Shown one piece after another: positions 16,578-56,465 of a stretch of 64,000 bases of DNA. Source of the DNA: Pseudomonadota bacterium (GTDB lineage: Bacteria > Desulfobacterota > Syntrophorhabdia > Syntrophorhabdales > Syntrophorhabdaceae); the NCBI GenBank assembly GCA_026388315.1, contig JAPLKA010000110.1, positions 1-64,000 on the forward strand. Reading direction: 5' to 3'. Under the pieces are notes generated by a model that saw only the letters and a list, made by a program, of their open reading frames with translations, was not told the origin of the DNA and searched no databases. Every line of letters starts with the position of its first letter. Position 1 is the stretch's first letter. Both the position numbers and the translations under genes were made by a program.

Positions 16578-16589
16578 GTTTTTCCATTT

Positions 16590-16740
16590 CCGGGGCTTGC
16601 GTCGCCCCCTCTTGCCACCCGCGGAATGGTATATCACTCCGATATTCAGTCAGGGGGGCGCGGGTGCCCGGCCAAGACAGTTCTTCTCTCCTCTTCATGG
16701 CCGTGTGAGCCTCCCCCTCATGCTCGCTTATGCTCGCAGG
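16590..16740 (-). repeat. repeat family A, copy A1
   Basis: Read on the minus strand this copy starts GCGAGCATAAGCGAGCATGA and ends with the core GAGGGGGCGACGCAAGCCCC. The two ends match copies A3 and A4. The interior is longer than in the other copies and differs in sequence. The TAA stop of the rluD-type gene (16728-16730) lies inside the repeat, so its last codons are repeat-derived. Confidence 0.75.
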
Positions 16741-17924
16741 GTTGACTCCCACTGGTAAACCCCATGGGAGTCTATAAACTCCTCAATATCCGCCGGTACT
16801 GGCGCCTCAATGAAAACCGGCATGCCCGTGACCGGATGTATGAACTCTATCCTGTGTGCGTGTAAAAGCGGTCTTTCGGTGACATGTTTTGCCCTTTTAC
16901 CGTATGCTTCGTCGCCGACGATGGGATGACCCATGTGTGTCAGGTGGACTCTTATCTGATGGGTTCTCCCCGTCTTCGGATACGCCTCAATATAGGTGAA
17001 ACCGTTCAATCTTTTTATAACCTTGAAGGCCGTAGAGGCATCCCTTCCACCTTCTTTCAGCACAGCCATCTTCTTTCTGTTCGTGGGGTGTCGCCCGATA
17101 TTCCCTTCGATTATGCCCTCATTTTTCATAACAATTTCTTCTACTACTGCTCTATACGTTTTGCGGACACTTCTCTCTTTAAAAAGAGCAGAAAGCATCT
17201 CCTGCGTCCTGGAATCTTTTGCGACGATAATAACACCGGTGGTGTCTTTGTCGAGCCGGTGGACAATGCCGGGACGATGAGCCGCTGACGCGGAATTTCG
17301 GATTGTCCCTCCGCTGTCGGGATTAAACCGTACGGATTTCGGATTTCTATCATTCCTGTCTTCTATCGCCGATACGCCGATACGCCGATACGCCGTTTCT
17401 GACCCATCCGACCCCTTTTTCGCCTCTGTATCTTTAGCCTCCCCTTCCCCTATCTTCGTAACTTCGCAACTTCGGCCTTTCTCCTTCCCCTCTACACTCT
17501 CTCCTCTACGCTCTTTGCTCCTCTCTCCTGACCCCTTGAACCCTCGAACCCTCGAACCCTGCTTTGTTAGGTACGCCAGTACCGCATTTACCAGCGTTCC
17601 ATCCCTGTGCCCGAATGATGGATGTACTACCATCCCTTTCGGTTTGTTAATGGCAAGGAAATATTCATCTTCATAGAGGATGTTCAGAGGAATTTCCTGT
17701 GGTTCCAGCATTAATGGCTCTTCCTCCGGGATTTCACCATCAATCTCGATGAACTTCTTCATCTTTGTCGATGGTTTCGGCGGTTTGCCTGTAATGCGTA
17801 TATGTCCCCCCTCGATCATACTCTTGATTTTTGTCCGTGTAATGGAAAGCTTTTCCGAGAGATATGTATCCAACCTCTTCCCTTCCTCATTACATATTAT
17901 ATGGAATTGTCTTTCCGGACTCAT
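16728..17924 (-). CDS. RluD-family 23S rRNA pseudouridine synthase with a large in-frame insertion
   Basis: A protein of 398 residues; family members usually have about 300-330. An S4 RNA-binding domain (15-75) precedes the catalytic domain, which has HRLDKDTTG with the catalytic Asp (near 225), GRTHQIRVHL and GHPIVGDEAYG. Between AVLAYLT (to about 120) and RPGIVHRLD (from about 217) lie about 95 highly charged residues with no counterpart in the family. Their DNA (about 17280-17564) consists of short tandem words. The stop lies in repeat A1. The target uridine is unknown; RluD-like action is inferred. Confidence 0.88.
   Translation of the reverse strand: MSPERQFHIICNEEGKRLDTYLSEKLSITRTKIKSMIEGGHIRITGKPPKPSTKMKKFIEIDGEIPEEEPLMLEPQEIPLNILYEDEYFLAINKPKGMVVHPSFGHRDGTLVNAVLAYLTKQGSRVRGFKGSGERSKERRGESVEGKEKGRSCEVTKIGEGEAKDTEAKKGSDGSETAYRRIGVSAIEDRNDRNPKSVRFNPDSGGTIRNSASAAHRPGIVHRLDKDTTGVIIVAKDSRTQEMLSALFKERSVRKTYRAVVEEIVMKNEGIIEGNIGRHPTNRKKMAVLKEGGRDASTAFKVIKRLNGFTYIEAYPKTGRTHQIRVHLTHMGHPIVGDEAYGKRAKHVTERPLLHAHRIEFIHPVTGMPVFIEAPVPADIEEFIDSHGVYQWESTLRA
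17280..17564 (-). repeat. mosaic of 7/8-bp tandem words inside the rluD-type gene
   Basis: The minus strand shows GGGTTCGA repeated three times (period 8), GTAGAGG/GTGTAGA words, CGAAGTTG/CGAAGTTA (period 8), GTATCGGC three times (period 8) and AATCCGA-type words (period 7). The reading frame stays open through all of it. The same words recur in the gene-free stretch 23195-24000. Confidence 0.75.
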
Positions 17925-21760: not shown

Positions 21761-23194
21761 ATGCTGATAGAACGATTTATTGCCAATTATGCCCGTAAAA
21801 AAAATGAGAGCTATCTACAGTTTGCTCCTTCTGCATCCATTACAATCCCCCGCAGTTCAGGCGATATGCCGACACTTCTTTATATGCATGTTCCTTTTTG
21901 CGAGGAGCTTTGCCCGTATTGTTCATTTAACAGGGTAACATTTCAGGAGGGACTTGCCCGGTCATATTTCGCCGCCTTACGCAAAGAGATTATAATGTAC
22001 AAAGAGCTGGGATATGACTTTAAGGCCCTTTATGTAGGAGGGGGCACACCAACGGTATTGATTGACGAACTCGAAGAGACAATCAATCTGACCAGACAAA
22101 AATTCAATATTATTGAAGTTTCTGTAGAGACAAACCCGAATCACCTTACGCCTAATAACATTGAAATGTTGAAGAAAATGGGGGTAAATCGACTTTCTGT
22201 AGGGGTTCAGACCTTTGATGACGGCCTTCTTGAGACGATTGAACGGTATCACAAATACGGAAGCGGCCAGGAGATAGCAGAGAGGCTGCAATATACGCAG
22301 GGAAACTTCCAGACGCTTAATGTGGATATGATATTTAATTTCCCCACACAGACGATGGAAATACTTGAAAAAGACCTGTCCACGCTTATCGGATTAAAGG
22401 TAGACCAGGTGACATATTACCCGCTTATGGTATCCTCCTTTACGCGGGACATAATGAATAGTAAGCTTGGAAGCGTGGATTACGACAGAGGGAAGGATTT
22501 TTACCAAAAGATAACAGAGATGTTTTCCGCCCAATATAAGGCATCTACCGCATGGTGTTTTTCACGGAACAACAAGATAGCGGATTCCCGCAACCCTGCT
22601 CGCGGCAACCTCGCCGGTGTGCAAGCCCCGGTAGGCGAAATCCTTAGCACGCAAGGCGTGCGAGAAGGGGAGGCTCCGGCAGCTTGGCTGCCGGAGGGGG
22701 CGACCCCCTTACGGGGACAGGCGCAAGCCCCGGTAATAGACGAGTATGTAGTCAATTATGAGGAATATGCGGGTCTCGGGAGCGGTTCCATCGGATACCT
22801 CGGCGGGAGCGCATATGCTAATACATTTGATATCAGGGCATATATCGAGAGAATAAATGAAGGGCTGCTGCCGGTAGCTGCAAAAAAGGCATTTTCCATG
22901 AAGGAGAGGCTTTGCTATGATCTTTTAATGAAGCTTTTTGGCTTGAGTCTCGATATTGAACAGCTTAGCGCAAAGCATGGCGTAAATATATACAGGTACT
23001 TATGGCCTGAAATTGTATTTTTCAGACTCACCGGCGGGATGGAAAAACATGGCAATCTCCTTACACTCACTAAAAAGGGACAATATTACTGGGTTCTTAT
23101 GATGCGTGAATTCTTTGTCGGTGTCAATAACTTCAGAGACTACTGCAGGGCGCAACTTGGGGCGGAAGACAGAAGTCAGATGACAGAAGGCTGA
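21761..23194 (+). CDS. HemN/HemW-like radical SAM enzyme with in-frame repeat insertion
   Basis: A protein of 477 residues. The radical SAM cluster motif is Cys47-x3-Cys51-x2-Cys54 (FCEELCPYCSF), followed by YVGGGTPTVL, SVETNPNHL and LSVGVQTFDD, as in coproporphyrinogen dehydrogenase relatives. After CFSRNNKIA (about 270) comes a Gly/Ala/Pro-rich segment of about 50 residues that is absent from the family. The normal sequence resumes at IDEYVVNYEEYAGLG. Its DNA is repeat A2. The last residues (DRSQMTEG) come from a heptad tract. Function as a heme-pathway or heme-chaperone-like enzyme is inferred. Confidence 0.82.
   Translation: MLIERFIANYARKKNESYLQFAPSASITIPRSSGDMPTLLYMHVPFCEELCPYCSFNRVTFQEGLARSYFAALRKEIIMYKELGYDFKALYVGGGTPTVLIDELEETINLTRQKFNIIEVSVETNPNHLTPNNIEMLKKMGVNRLSVGVQTFDDGLLETIERYHKYGSGQEIAERLQYTQGNFQTLNVDMIFNFPTQTMEILEKDLSTLIGLKVDQVTYYPLMVSSFTRDIMNSKLGSVDYDRGKDFYQKITEMFSAQYKASTAWCFSRNNKIADSRNPARGNLAGVQAPVGEILSTQGVREGEAPAAWLPEGATPLRGQAQAPVIDEYVVNYEEYAGLGSGSIGYLGGSAYANTFDIRAYIERINEGLLPVAAKKAFSMKERLCYDLLMKLFGLSLDIEQLSAKHGVNIYRYLWPEIVFFRLTGGMEKHGNLLTLTKKGQYYWVLMMREFFVGVNNFRDYCRAQLGAEDRSQMTEG
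22621..22735 (+). repeat. repeat family A, copy A2, inside the HemN-like gene
   Basis: The copy begins and ends with the same 13-bp word GCAAGCCCCGGTA (22621-22633 and 22723-22735), 102 bp apart, which is exactly 34 codons. Between them are GCACGCaagGCGTGC, the hairpin CTCCGGCAG/CTGCCGGAG and GAGGGGGCGAC. The reading frame passes through without a stop. Confidence 0.8.
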
Positions 23195-23296
23195 AGGGGA
23201 AAGACCGAAGTTGCGAAGATGCGAAGATGGGGGAAGGGAAGAGCGGATGAAGGGAAGAGCGGATGAAGGTAGTGAATGGTGAATAGTTTATAGTTG

Positions 23297-23321
23297 AACC
23301 TCCACATAATAATACTAACCA
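23297..23321 (+). repeat. 25-bp inverted repeat, left copy
   Basis: Starts AACCTCCACATA and ends ATACTAACCA. It is the exact reverse complement of 26420-26444. The pair brackets 3.1 kb with two genes. Confidence 0.9.
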
Positions 23322-23657
23322 TCTCAAATCAGCATCAGTGATTTTGTCTGTTTTTAACTTAAAACTTAAAACTTCCACTTACCAATGCCCGCACCCGTAA
23401 GGAAAAGCTGGTCAAGAAAAAGCCCCCTCAGGTGTGAAAGGAGCGGAGAGCGTAGAGTATAGAGCGTAGAGCAGGCAAGAAGAGCCGAACCGGCGAGACG
23501 GTGTATCGGCGAAACAGTGATGAAGACAAATGATAAAAGCAGTGAATAGTGAATAGTGAATGGCAATCAGAAAACATTGAACCTTGAACAGCTTTTTGCA
23601 ATCCGCAATCTGAAATCAACAATCCGAAATGAGATGGGGGAAATGCCGTGCAAAGGT

Positions 23658-37383: not shown

Positions 37384-37462
37384 CGGGATGTAGCTCAGCA
37401 TGGTGTAGAGCGCTTGCTTCGGGAGCAAGAGGCCGCTGGTTCAAATCCAGTCATCCCGACCA
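37384..37462 (+). tRNA. tRNA-Pro (anticodon CGG)
   Basis: The acceptor stem CGGGATG pairs with CATCCCG, the D-arm is GCTC/GAGC, the anticodon stem CTTGC/GCAAG holds loop TTCGGGA (anticodon CGG), and the T-arm is CTGG TTCAAAT CCAG. Discriminator A and CCA are encoded. A TATTCT box at 37369-37374 with a weak -35 region (37346-37351) could be its promoter. Confidence 0.93.
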
Positions 37463-37802
37463 TTCTATATTCAACCCTGCATAACCTTTTGCAATATGTT
37501 AAACTATTGCATAAATCTCTCAATGTTACGAAATGTTGTTCAAAATACTTGACTTGTGTATACTATGTAATTAAAGACAAAGGGATAAACCCAAATATGT
37601 CGTTAGGAAGGTGTCGGGGTATCCCGGAGCAAACCGTCGAGAAGCGAGGAAGCTTGGTCTTTTGCGTATGCAAAAGTTCCGAAGCCGAACGCGAGCGATT
37701 GAAGCCGCTGGAACGGAATGAGCGTGTTTGAGAGGGATGGTCCGACACCCATATGATTCTAATGATAAATCCGGGATAATGAGATAGAGAGAGGTATGTG
37801 AA
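37463..37802 (+). other. intergenic stretch between tRNA-Pro and the LysM-FecR-DctP gene
   Basis: No gene is seen. It holds a small hairpin GCAATA/TATTGC (about 37490-37512), a possible promoter (TTGACT at 37549-37554 with a poor -10), and the structured element 37610-37749. The ribosome-binding site GAGAGAGG lies just before 37803. Confidence 0.6.
37610..37749 (+). other. structured 140-nt element with complementary ends (ncRNA, leader or repeat)
   Basis: The ends GGTGTCGG and CCGACACC are complementary, and the pairing extends imperfectly (GTATCCC with GGGATGG). Inside is a perfect hairpin CTTTTGCgtatGCAAAAG. It lies between tRNA-Pro and a plus-strand coding gene. It matches no riboswitch I know well. 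Confidence 0.5.
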
Positions 37803-40393: not shown

Positions 40394-40412
40394 AGCTACC
40401 TCTAAAATACAA

Positions 40413-40487
40413 TTACTGGGGCTTGCGTCGCCCCCTCCACAGGCTAAGCCCGCGGAGCCTTCCCCTCATGCTCGCGGTGCTCGCTGT
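40413..40487 (-). repeat. repeat family A, copy A3
   Basis: On the minus strand: GCGAGCaccGCGAGCATGAG, then GGGGAAGGCTCC, a hairpin GCGGGCTtAGCCTGT and the core GAGGGGGCGACGCAAGCCCC followed by AGTAAT. It lies between comM and the hypothetical gene, outside coding sequence. Confidence 0.78.
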
Positions 40488-40520
40488 GTAGATTCCAGCG
40501 GGCTTGCCCGTGAAATCTAC
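40488..40520 (-). terminator. hairpin at the comM 3' end
   Basis: GTAGATT...GCGGGC, a TT loop, GCCCG...AATCTAC. The right arm overlaps the comM stop codon. There is no T run, so termination is not assured; it could equally be part of repeat A3. Confidence 0.4.
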
Positions 40521-54042: not shown

Positions 54043-56345
54043 CAAAAGAAAAGACAATCCAAATCACAATCGACAACAAAAAGGTAGATGCCCGGCCGAA
54101 TCAGACCATATTGCAGGCCGCACGGGAACATCAGATCTATATTCCCTCTTTGTGTGCCATGGAACATTTATCTTCCTACGGCGCGTGCCGTCTTTGTGTG
54201 GTAGAGGTGGACGGTTTAAGGGGCTTCCCTACATCATGCACCACACCTGTTGAAGAGGGGATGGTTATCCGCACTGACACTGCTGAAGTGAAGAGCCTGC
54301 GGCAGGAAGTGCTTAAACTGCTCCTGAGCGAACACCCGGCAAGCTGTCTCTTCTGTACCGAACAGGATGAATGTAAACAGTATATGGGGACAATACGCAA
54401 AGTGGGTGCAACGACAGGGTGCCGATACTGTCCCAACGATCATCGTTGCGAACTTCAGCAGATTGCAGAGAATATCGGTTTGACGGAGACTTCATATCCC
54501 GTCTATTACCGCAATTTTCCTGTTGAAAAATATGACCCCTTCTATGACCGTGATTATAACCTCTGCATCCTGTGCGGGCGTTGTGTCCGTGTCTGCAACA
54601 ACGTACGTCTCAACGGCACACTGAGCTTCAAGCAGCGCGGAAGGGTGACCACCATAGGCCCTGCCTTTGATCGCTCCCATATTGATGCCGGGTGCGAGTT
54701 CTGCGGCGCCTGCGTTACGGCATGCCCCACAGGGGCTTTAAGCGTAAAGGTAAGCAAATGGTACGGAAAGCCGGAAGGACAGGTCGCAACGACCTGCAAT
54801 TATTGCTCTGCAGGGTGCAGGTTAATCCTCCAGACGACGAAAACCGATGTCATAGATGCCCTGCCAGATTACGATTCGGCAGTGGAGCACGGTATTATCT
54901 GTGTAAAAGGGAGGTTTGGAATCACTGAATATGTTCACAGTCCACTCCGCTATGGCACACCCAAAGAAATGACGTCAGCAGGATACAATGATATATCCTG
55001 GGAAGAGGCTATCGCAAAAGCTGCCGGGAAATTATCAGGTCTGAAACCCGATGATTGCCTGATTGTGGTTTCACCGCAACTCCTGAATGAGGATCTTTTT
55101 ATAGCGCAGCAGTTTATAAGGCAGGTCACAGGCTCTGAAGAAGTAGCATCATCCTTTATCTTTGACCTTGATGGAGATGCTGCATCTTTCATAAATCTGG
55201 CCCTTGCCTCTGAGCCCTTTGAAACAATTGAAAAGGCGCAGGGCATCCTGGCCGTTGGTTTTGATTCTACCTATGGCTATTCCCCTATCGGGGTAAAGGC
55301 CAAACAGGCCGCCCAGGCAGGAGCCTCTCTAATGAGTCTCAATTCCTTTGAATCCAACCTTGATCTTCTCTCAGGGATGGCCTTTGTTGTAGATTCATCG
55401 AGATGGGCCGATGTGTTAGACCTCACGATGAGCCGCATGTCAAAAGGTAAGGCGGAGAAACGTTTTGCCGACCTTATGGAGATGTGGGGGAGTGACATTG
55501 ATAAGACATGCGAAACATTCTCCCGTTCATCACATAATGTACTGATTGTGGGACCAGGGATCATCGATTCACCTGACAGGGGAAAGATTCTGAGAAGCAT
55601 TGAAAGAATGAAAAATGAGTACTCATGGAAGGTTGTCGTTGCCCATCAATATACAAACCTCGCAGGGATGTTTGCAATGGGCGCCTGTCCGGGCATTAAA
55701 CCGGGCGAAATGATTAAAGAGGCTTCAGCAGACAAGGCCGTAGTTATCAAGGCTGAACTGATACATATTGACCTCAGGAAAAAACGGAAACTCATTTACC
55801 TTATTGGCGATGCTTCTTTTGATTCCCTTCCTGAATGCGAGTTCCTCATTTACCAGAACGCACTGCCTCCACAATGTTCCCGTCAACCTGATTTAATACT
55901 CCCGGTGAGTCTTTTCACCGAGGCATCGGGGACGGTTATCAGTGCTGAAGGAAGGGTTTTGCAGGTGAAAGAGGCGGTAGCACCGTACATGGATTCAAAG
56001 CCTGACTGGTGGATATTGAAGAGTATTGCCGAAAAGATGAGCAAGGGAAAGATGAAGTTCAATGATGTGTCTTCAATCCAGGGGGAGATTAAAAAAATAA
56101 TAAAAGGGTTCCCCGCCGTGAAAAAGCGGATTGAATTCAAGCAAATTGAGGTAAAGGGCAATGTTAAGACCCACGGGAAGGGGAAACCTGCAGCATGGAA
56201 AAGTAGTTACAGGGGCATACCCCTCGGGGAGGTTGTATCGGGAATAAAGGTCATAGAGTTAAATAGCACGCACAGTGTGCGAGAGAGGGTGGCCGGGTAC
56301 CCCGCTTGCGGGTGTCCCAGTGATGCCGTGATGCGTGATCGGTGA
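54039..56345 (+). CDS. NuoG-like FeS/molybdopterin-fold subunit with a repeat-derived C-terminus
   Basis: A protein of 768 residues. An N-terminal [2Fe-2S] domain (CAMEHLSSYGACRLC), a His-Cys-type 4Fe-4S site (HPASCLFCTEQDEC), two 4Fe-4S motifs (CILCGRCVRVC, CEFCGACVTACP), then a molybdopterin-type fold beginning CNYCSAGCRL. The fold is short and no catalytic Cys/Sec of formate dehydrogenases was found, so it is probably an electron-conducting NuoG/HymC type. The native end appears to be near GVVSGIKVIE; the last 26 residues (from about 743) come from repeat A4 and a heptad tract. Confidence 0.87.
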   Translation: MTKEKTIQITIDNKKVDARPNQTILQAAREHQIYIPSLCAMEHLSSYGACRLCVVEVDGLRGFPTSCTTPVEEGMVIRTDTAEVKSLRQEVLKLLLSEHPASCLFCTEQDECKQYMGTIRKVGATTGCRYCPNDHRCELQQIAENIGLTETSYPVYYRNFPVEKYDPFYDRDYNLCILCGRCVRVCNNVRLNGTLSFKQRGRVTTIGPAFDRSHIDAGCEFCGACVTACPTGALSVKVSKWYGKPEGQVATTCNYCSAGCRLILQTTKTDVIDALPDYDSAVEHGIICVKGRFGITEYVHSPLRYGTPKEMTSAGYNDISWEEAIAKAAGKLSGLKPDDCLIVVSPQLLNEDLFIAQQFIRQVTGSEEVASSFIFDLDGDAASFINLALASEPFETIEKAQGILAVGFDSTYGYSPIGVKAKQAAQAGASLMSLNSFESNLDLLSGMAFVVDSSRWADVLDLTMSRMSKGKAEKRFADLMEMWGSDIDKTCETFSRSSHNVLIVGPGIIDSPDRGKILRSIERMKNEYSWKVVVAHQYTNLAGMFAMGACPGIKPGEMIKEASADKAVVIKAELIHIDLRKKRKLIYLIGDASFDSLPECEFLIYQNALPPQCSRQPDLILPVSLFTEASGTVISAEGRVLQVKEAVAPYMDSKPDWWILKSIAEKMSKGKMKFNDVSSIQGEIKKIIKGFPAVKKRIEFKQIEVKGNVKTHGKGKPAAWKSSYRGIPLGEVVSGIKVIELNSTHSVRERVAGYPACGCPSDAVMRDR

Positions 56346-56450
56346 CGCGTGACAGGTAAATATGACGTAAGCCTTTAGCACGCACAGCGTGCGAGAGGGG
56401 AAGTCTCTTCGGGCTTTGCTCGAAGAGGGGGCGACGTGAGCCCCAGTGAT
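56264..56450 (+). repeat. repeat family A, copy A4 (two half copies with a GTGATNN tract between)
   Basis: First half (about 56266-56330): GCACGCacaGTGTGCGAGAG and a variant tail. Heptads GTGATGC GTGATCG GTGACGC GTGACAG follow (about 56323-56357). Second half (about 56377-56450): GCACGCacaGCGTGCGAGAG, the hairpin TCTTCGGGCT/GCTCGAAGA and the core GAGGGGGCGACGTGAGCCCC. The first half and the heptads encode the tail of the NuoG-like protein; the second half lies in the leader of the next gene. Confidence 0.8.
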
Positions 56451-56465
56451 TGAAGGGAGGGTAAG

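What the first reader, a model, noticed from the sequence alone, without database searches (positions are those of the whole stretch)
22580..22738. Repeat A2 inserted in frame in a HemN-like radical SAM gene
Seen: about 50 codons of hairpin DNA between conserved segments CFSRNNKIA and IDEYVVNYE, bounded by 13-bp direct repeats exactly 102 bp (34 codons) apart. The frame is open. The rest of the enzyme looks intact. Known parallel: Rickettsia palindromic elements inserted in frame in genes. Inferred: a protein-tolerated selfish repeat outside the Rickettsiales.
Basis: partly seen in the sequence, partly recalled or inferred. Interest (0 to 1): 0.72.

Follow-up and report, generated by a model that had tools for sequence, protein, structure and literature searches.

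The report
Mobile hairpin repeat inside enzyme gene
A short, many-copy, hairpin-forming DNA repeat has jumped into the gene of a heme-related radical SAM enzyme without breaking its reading frame, and the same repeat sits in frame in several other genes of related bacteria, so it is a new example of a known but rare habit of small mobile repeats.

Summary
Relative to its same-genus orthologue, the PRK08629-type radical SAM gene (21761-23194) carries 52 extra codons (22574-22735). They are one complete long-form copy plus a 3' remnant of a second copy of a three-hairpin repeat with 49 BLAST matches in this genome; the 13-bp direct repeats are the 3' ends of the two copies. 26 of 28 orthologue loci from relatives lack the insert, the same-genus one included. 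Two species of another genus carry a separate copy at the same codon junction. The repeat also lies inside GltD-like, HdrA-like, DUF4922, ThpR and UvrA genes: every internal case found is sense and in one frame. The hairpins covary. AlphaFold models the insert as a disordered loop in an otherwise confident HemN fold. So 'protein-tolerated mobile repeat' holds. It is not the first outside the Rickettsiales: in-frame REPs and ERICs are published. One result is unexpected: in five orthologous pairs the insert changes evenly at all codon positions (9, 13, 11 of 111) while host fourfold sites differ at 417 of 1056, which suggests constraint on the nucleic acid, or conversion between copies, rather than selection on the peptide. 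Mobilising enzyme, translation and host cost remain unshown.

The parts
21761..23194 (+). HemN-family radical SAM gene (NCBIfam NF006385, PRK08629), 477 aa with the insert
   Evidence: NCBIfam 480.5 bits, cut-off 355; Radical_SAM Pfam 75 bits; model matches 1olt HemN
22574..22735 (+). Whole insert: 54 codons in place of 2 codons of the orthologue (net +156 nt); edges uncertain by about 6 nt
   Evidence: DNA comparison with the same-genus orthologue; pLDDT below 50 for residues 271-326
22580..22636 (+). 3' remnant of a first repeat copy, ending in GCAAGCCCCGGTA (22621-22633) plus a short spacer
   Evidence: the 11-158 match to L133 shows the same head-to-tail order; tandem copies also in L138 and in UvrA of G005
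22637..22743 (+). Complete long-form copy of the three-hairpin repeat (the last bases of the model match overlap the target IDE codons)
   Evidence: CM R1 81.5 bits, E 4.6e-29; alignment
22705..22722 (+). 18-nt extra hairpin module (6 codons, keeps the frame) that separates long from short copies
   Evidence: alignment of long and short copies
22723..22735 (+). Second GCAAGCCCCGGTA, the 3' end of the complete copy
40406..40494 (-). Intergenic full-length copy of the same repeat
   Evidence: CM R1 92.9 bits; context
56368..56456 (+). Intergenic full-length copy, 14 nt upstream of a called gene
   Evidence: CM R1 92.4 bits; context
16580..16747 (-). Interrupted copy of the same repeat
   Evidence: CM R1 46.3 bits; inverted repeats I4, I5
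56256..56330 (+). Weak, degenerate copy beside the 56368 copy
   Evidence: CM R1 27 bits, E 2.3e-8

Best explanation
The insert is a compound (3' remnant plus one complete copy) of a small structured mobile repeat of the Syntrophorhabdales. It entered a permissive loop between the radical SAM barrel and the C-terminal part of a HemN-family enzyme after this lineage split from its same-genus relative. Shown: multicopy, covarying hairpins, absence in orthologues, open frame, several other in-frame cases in one frame. Inferred: the repeat moves as DNA with the help of an enzyme acting in trans; only insertions that add the hydrophilic, disordered sense-frame peptide (EREGEAPAALLLEGATQAP type) in a surface loop survive; the peptide is translated and tolerated. 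The mobilising enzyme is unknown. A single-strand HUH (Y1) transposase is a candidate, at perhaps 0.3, because of the subterminal hairpins and because no target duplication is visible at the one exact empty site.
For: Insert absent in 26 of 28 relative loci and, among 79 measurable genome-contig loci, no extra codons in 57 and unrelated loop sequence (judged by eye) in 22. Same-genus orthologue empty. 49 matches in own genome; 28 of 60 genomes. In-frame copies with insert-free orthologues in GltD-like, HdrA-like, DUF4922 and ThpR proteins; UvrA profile split at 443-450/451 around a tandem array. Covariation: 8 of 19 pairs changed on both sides, 97.8% of cells paired against 91.6% shuffled, score .260 against .139, 0 of 500 shuffles. 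Purifying selection on the interrupted gene: pN .032, pS .245 for G000/G002 over 191 codons; pN .071, pS .534 for G005/G016 over 424 codons, both of these with an insert. Model: mean pLDDT 81.7, insert blocks about 21-33.
Against: No transposition was seen. No carrier enzyme was identified: the core is absent from all 36 fetched Y1-transposase loci, and G005, with 59 matches and 99% completeness, has no Y1 match. The insert shows no codon periodicity, so nothing shows that the peptide itself is selected. Translation is not shown.
Confidence: 0.82

Rival explanations
1. Functional structured element: the copies, also those inside genes, are kept by selection on the DNA or RNA hairpins (for example a processing, pausing or protein-binding site), so it is not simply selfish.
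For: Five orthologous insert pairs: differences 9, 13, 11 of 111 at codon positions 1, 2, 3, against 417 of 1056 host fourfold sites. Upstream of pdxA in G042, G009 and G046 the element is 54-55 of 55 identical although pdxA pS is .43-.55. Stems covary.
Against: Gene conversion or concerted evolution could give the same pattern; orthologue copies are only slightly closer than the best other copies (.93 against .91-.93.98 against .93-.95). 12 of 39 family genomes have no A1 match, so it is not needed for life. In G042/G048 (pdxA pS .09) element and flank differ. The histidine-kinase-tail pair alone is weak (third positions p .63).
Confidence: 0.2
2. RNA splicing or translational bypass removes the segment, so it is not in the protein.
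For: The segment is strongly structured. Recalled, from no call: mobile bypass elements in yeast mitochondria are hairpin inserts.
Against: All seven inferred internal events are in the same sense frame and stop-free, apart from the frame break inside the UvrA array; a removed segment would not need that. No Rfam intron family at gathering score in the window.
Confidence: 0.04
3. The gene is inactivated and the open frame is luck.
For: The insert is large and new; G008's orthologue (L071), which lacks the repeat, has an in-frame stop.
Against: The frame stays open over 54 codons; gene pN/pS is low in pairs with and without the insert; the CEELCPYC cluster motif and the conserved columns are present; the model is confident outside the insert.
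Confidence: 0.06
4. Ancient native loop or domain of this enzyme family, lost in most relatives.
For: G005 and G016 carry a homologous segment at the same junction; Eggerthellales-type orthologues have 27-171 nt loops there.
Against: The segment is the multicopy repeat. The same-genus G002 lacks it and G000's flank is G002-like, not G005-like. The Eggerthellales loops look unrelated in sequence (by eye).
Confidence: 0.03
5. Assembly or binning artefact.
For: The genomes are fragmented, and the UvrA array in G005 shows a truncated copy that shifts the frame.
Against: Independent genomes carry in-frame copies with gene-specific flanks and shared variants.
Confidence: 0.02

Closest known systems
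Rickettsia palindromic elements (RPE families) and the Wolbachia elements
   Same: About 100-150 bp palindromic repeats found both between genes and in frame inside unrelated genes; encoded peptides in solvent-exposed places; same gene and site in several species (passages of PMC3767692, PMC10969869, PMC3733652)
   Different: Different phylum; one three-hairpin unit of about 80-105 nt plus tandem compounds; all internal cases found are in one frame; one passage says RPEs lose repeat identity with time (PMC6649704), whereas here orthologous inserts change little. No sequence comparison with RPEs was made.
Intragenic GTAG/CGTC REPs, e.g. Opitutus terrae and Thioalkalivibrio uvrA
   Same: Small palindromes inside genes outside the Rickettsiales, often dimers, uvrA among the targets (passages of PMC3733652)
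   Different: REPs are 20-40 bp palindromes tagged GTAG or CGTC, the GTAG ones often near RAYT genes; this unit is longer, shows no such terminal tag in the consensus, and was not found beside 36 Y1 genes
Enterobacterial ERIC (RU-1), RU-2, RU-3
   Same: About 100-170 bp mobile repeats whose frames fuse to genes (passages of PMC2759123)
   Different: The cases in the passages seen are fusions in enterobacteria, several at gene ends; different host group; sequences not compared here

Membership tests
Rickettsia palindromic elements | In-frame insertion in otherwise conserved genes, orthologues without it | tested here: met
Rickettsia palindromic elements | Rickettsiales host | tested here: not met
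Rickettsia palindromic elements | Sequence homology to a named RPE family | not tested
   No RPE sequences were fetched
GTAG/CGTC REP | 20-40 bp palindrome tagged by GTAG or CGTC | tested here: not met
   Consensus of 55 copies, about 80 nt, running from TAGC... to ...CCCCnGTAATAG
GTAG REP | Linked RAYT (Y1) transposase gene | tested here: not met
   0 of 36 fetched Y1 loci hold the core at E 0.1; copy number and Y1 count correlate, Spearman .52, p 6e-4, n 39, but G005 has 59 matches and no Y1 gene
MITE | Terminal inverted repeats of 10 bp or more | tested here: inconclusive
   None in the consensus; some copies are framed by GGAATCTATT and AATAGATTCC, which look like a neighbouring palindrome (read by eye)
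MITE | Target-site duplication | tested here: inconclusive
   None visible at the one exact empty site (window 37585-37780 against L160, L161)
Rfam families | Match at gathering score | tested here: not met
   Only a tRNA in the window
PRK08629 HemN-family protein (host gene) | Score above the curated cut-off | tested here: met
   480.5 bits against 355

The most novel reading that the evidence does not exclude
The repeat is a functional structured nucleic-acid element, not just selfish DNA: wherever it lands, including inside coding sequence, selection holds its hairpins, so the host protein carries a peptide whose sequence is dictated by RNA or DNA structure. Selection on the protein acts only as an entry filter for one frame.
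Probability: 0.18. Interest if true: 0.75.

Novelty: new member of a known kind. Interest (0 to 1): 0.48.

Why it matters
It extends in-frame mobile repeats to a largely uncultured anaerobic lineage with many copies, empty sites and several interrupted enzymes, which makes the tolerance of such peptides testable outside obligate intracellular bacteria. The lack of codon periodicity in orthologous inserts gives a direct way to ask whether such repeats are selfish or maintained for structure.

Tried and rejected
Target duplication as the meaning of the 13-bp repeats: rejected, they are the 3' ends of two copies.

Antisense frames as carriers: alignments A2 and A3 were searched in 39 genomes (lists cut). 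The long-open-frame candidates that I opened (12 items, one of them sense, and 6, partly the same loci) were upstream regions, apparently spurious frames, or overlapped the known sense tails. One, G005:C11, looks like an antisense C-terminal tail on a LysE-like protein (name by eye). None was internal to a conserved gene. These calls were made by reading the translations, without family searches.

RAYT linkage: core not found at E 1 in 7 own Y1 loci nor at E 0.1 in 36 family loci. Phages and plasmids: no match. Literature: searches listed no paper on this repeat; RepRanger (PMC12306157, term search of the main text) does not mention Syntroph- or Deltaproteobacteria. I did not see the original RPE papers (PMC186582 not held).

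Gene-disruption test: 41 full-length own copies were tested for open frames of 70 codons on both sides; 10 were flagged; 3 are the in-frame genes, the other 7 look intergenic or were not resolved one by one.

Full report
WHAT IS THERE. The gene at 21761-23194 encodes a 477-aa HemN-family radical SAM protein. Between CFSRNN and IDEYVV it has 54 codons where the same-genus orthologue G002 has two, NNAMIDEY. The two GCAAGCCCCGGTA copies start at 22621 and 22723, 102 nt apart. Reading all copies side by side shows that this 13-mer is the 3' end of a repeat unit. The insert is therefore a head-to-tail compound: the 3' part of one copy followed by a complete copy at 22637-22743 (CM 81.5 bits). The same tandem order occurs in L138 and in a UvrA gene of G005.

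THE REPEAT. Own genome: 49 BLAST matches. Relatives: 28 of 60 genomes matched, namely 24 of 37 in the same family (own included), 4 of 4 in a second family of the order, 0 of 3 in a third, 0 of 16 elsewhere in the phylum. A covariance model (R1) over 198 phylum genomes hit 10: four of the same family, five weak hits of 26-30 bits in one other family (only L305 looked at), and one strong single copy in G074 upstream of what looks like an electron-transfer flavoprotein gene, perhaps by transfer. The short form runs from TAGC through three hairpins to CCCCnGTAATAG; the long form adds 18 nt in the third hairpin. Of 61 matches in the loci at hand I kept 55 that span the core. In 27 short copies, 19 pairs are predicted and 8 show changes on both sides; 97.8% of cells pair against 91.6% in shuffles and at most 52% when slid. 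Hairpin 3 hardly varies and so is not supported by covariation. In helix 1, six copies break one pair.

INSERTION SITE. Of 28 orthologue loci from relatives (L010-L037), 26 lack the insert and 2 (G005, G016, one other genus) have a homologous one at the same junction. Of 80 genome-contig loci, 79 were measurable (L114 lacks the right flank): 57 have no extra codons to speak of, 21 Eggerthellales-type loci have loops of 27-171 nt that look unrelated, and one Desulfosporosinus record has 30 nt that look unrelated. Some of these contigs are the same genomes as the relatives. The site is thus a permissive loop. G000's flank resembles G002, not G005, so I infer two separate insertions at one site. 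An exact empty site comes from another repeat: window 37585-37780 and L130 are unfilled, L160 and L161 carry the core between GCGAGC and ATTGAAG, with no visible target duplication.

OTHER IN-FRAME COPIES. A search with the sense-frame peptide (A1) over 39 family genomes matched 27 (the list is cut). I read 27 items: the listed stop-free loci in open frames of 200 aa or more, plus G008 with one stop. Internal to conserved sequence: HemN in G000, G005, G016; GltD-like in G000 and G011; HdrA-like; a DUF4922 protein; ThpR; and UvrA with four tandem copies, one truncated, which breaks the frame in the assembly. Insert-free orthologues were aligned for four of these besides HemN. Ammonium transporters of G020 and G012 carry copies before the transporter domain. 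Three items are C-terminal tails (an ABC protein and two histidine kinases). A four-helix protein of G011 is probably internal, but its flank was not tested. The remaining eleven stop-free items lie at or before the probable start codon and may be untranslated (by eye). So there are seven inferred internal events (HemN twice, GltD-like, HdrA-like, DUF4922, ThpR, UvrA), all sense and in one frame. In 41 own copies that frame is open in 23, the two antisense frames I searched in 37 and 25, so chance alone would give about (23/85)^7, roughly 1e-4. The lists were cut, and two sense frames and one antisense frame were not searched as such, so this is only a guide. Between genes, orientation is 12 sense to 7 antisense in same-direction gaps by a crude gene caller, so the bias is probably a filter by the protein.

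PROTEIN. AlphaFold2 from 29 aligned sequences gives mean pLDDT 81.7, pTM .82; residues 271-326 are below 50. The best PDB fold is HemN, 1olt, TM .65 by query length. Outside the insert, pN/pS is .032/.245 for G000/G002 (191 codons only, the G002 gene is cut by its contig) and .071/.534 for G005/G016.

EVOLUTION OF THE INSERT. Five orthologous pairs were compared (HemN, GltD-like, histidine-kinase tail, ABC N-terminus, ammonium transporter). Codon positions 1, 2, 3 differ at 9, 13, 11 of 111 each; host fourfold sites differ at 64/143, 122/390, 57/205, 45/121, 129/197, together 417/1056. The tail pair alone is not significant at third positions (p .63). The orthologous copy is the best or joint-best match among 116 others for HemN and GltD, by a small margin; for one of the two ABC copies one other copy is closer. 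Upstream of pdxA, G042, G009 and G046 keep 54-55 of 55 bases with pdxA pS .43-.55, but the close pair G042/G048 differs. I read this as constraint on the nucleic acid or conversion between copies; the data do not separate the two.

MOVEMENT. Y1 transposases occur in 32 of 39 family genomes. Counts correlate with copy number (Spearman .52, p 6e-4; not corrected for relatedness). Against: G005 has 59 matches and no Y1 gene, and 0 of 36 fetched Y1 loci hold the core.

COMPARISON WITH PRINT. Seen as passages: PMC3733652 (intragenic REPs in several species, uvrA included), PMC2759123 (ERIC-type frame fusions), PMC10969869 (review; RPEs), PMC3767692 (RPEs, solvent-exposed, same sites), PMC6649704 (RPEs lose identity). 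None of the searches listed a paper on this repeat. The kind is known; this family appears undescribed in the library searched.

Noticed in passing
window 37588-37775; L130:2853-3041; L160, L161: A second structured-looking repeat of about 190 nt, just downstream of a tRNA (37384-37459) in the window; two of the four copies seen carry the hairpin repeat inside them.
   Followed up: partly
window 23195-23640 and 17439-17487: Intergenic text of degenerate short phrases (gtgaatagtgaatagtgaatg, gaagtcagaag...) and an 88% inverted pair with 17439-17487.
   Followed up: no
L153 (G000:C45) and L213 (G011:C32): GltD-like proteins of two genera are 94% identical while the HemN halves of the same pair are 68-72%: possible gene transfer carrying the insert along.
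   Followed up: partly
L207 (G005:C22): UvrA interrupted by four tandem copies, one truncated so that the two halves of the gene are in different frames; assembly collapse or real break.
   Followed up: partly
L071 / L169 (G008): Orthologue of the radical SAM gene with an in-frame stop but without the repeat.
   Followed up: no
L103-L128 (Eggerthellales and similar): Most of these orthologues carry unrelated-looking loops of 27-171 nt at exactly the insertion site: a naturally variable loop.
   Followed up: partly
L166 (G005:C12): The insert in this orthologue also contains a nested GGACGTAGGACG-type stretch, still in frame.
   Followed up: no
L303 (G074): Single strong copy of the repeat in a distant family, upstream of an electron-transfer flavoprotein-like gene.
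   Followed up: partly
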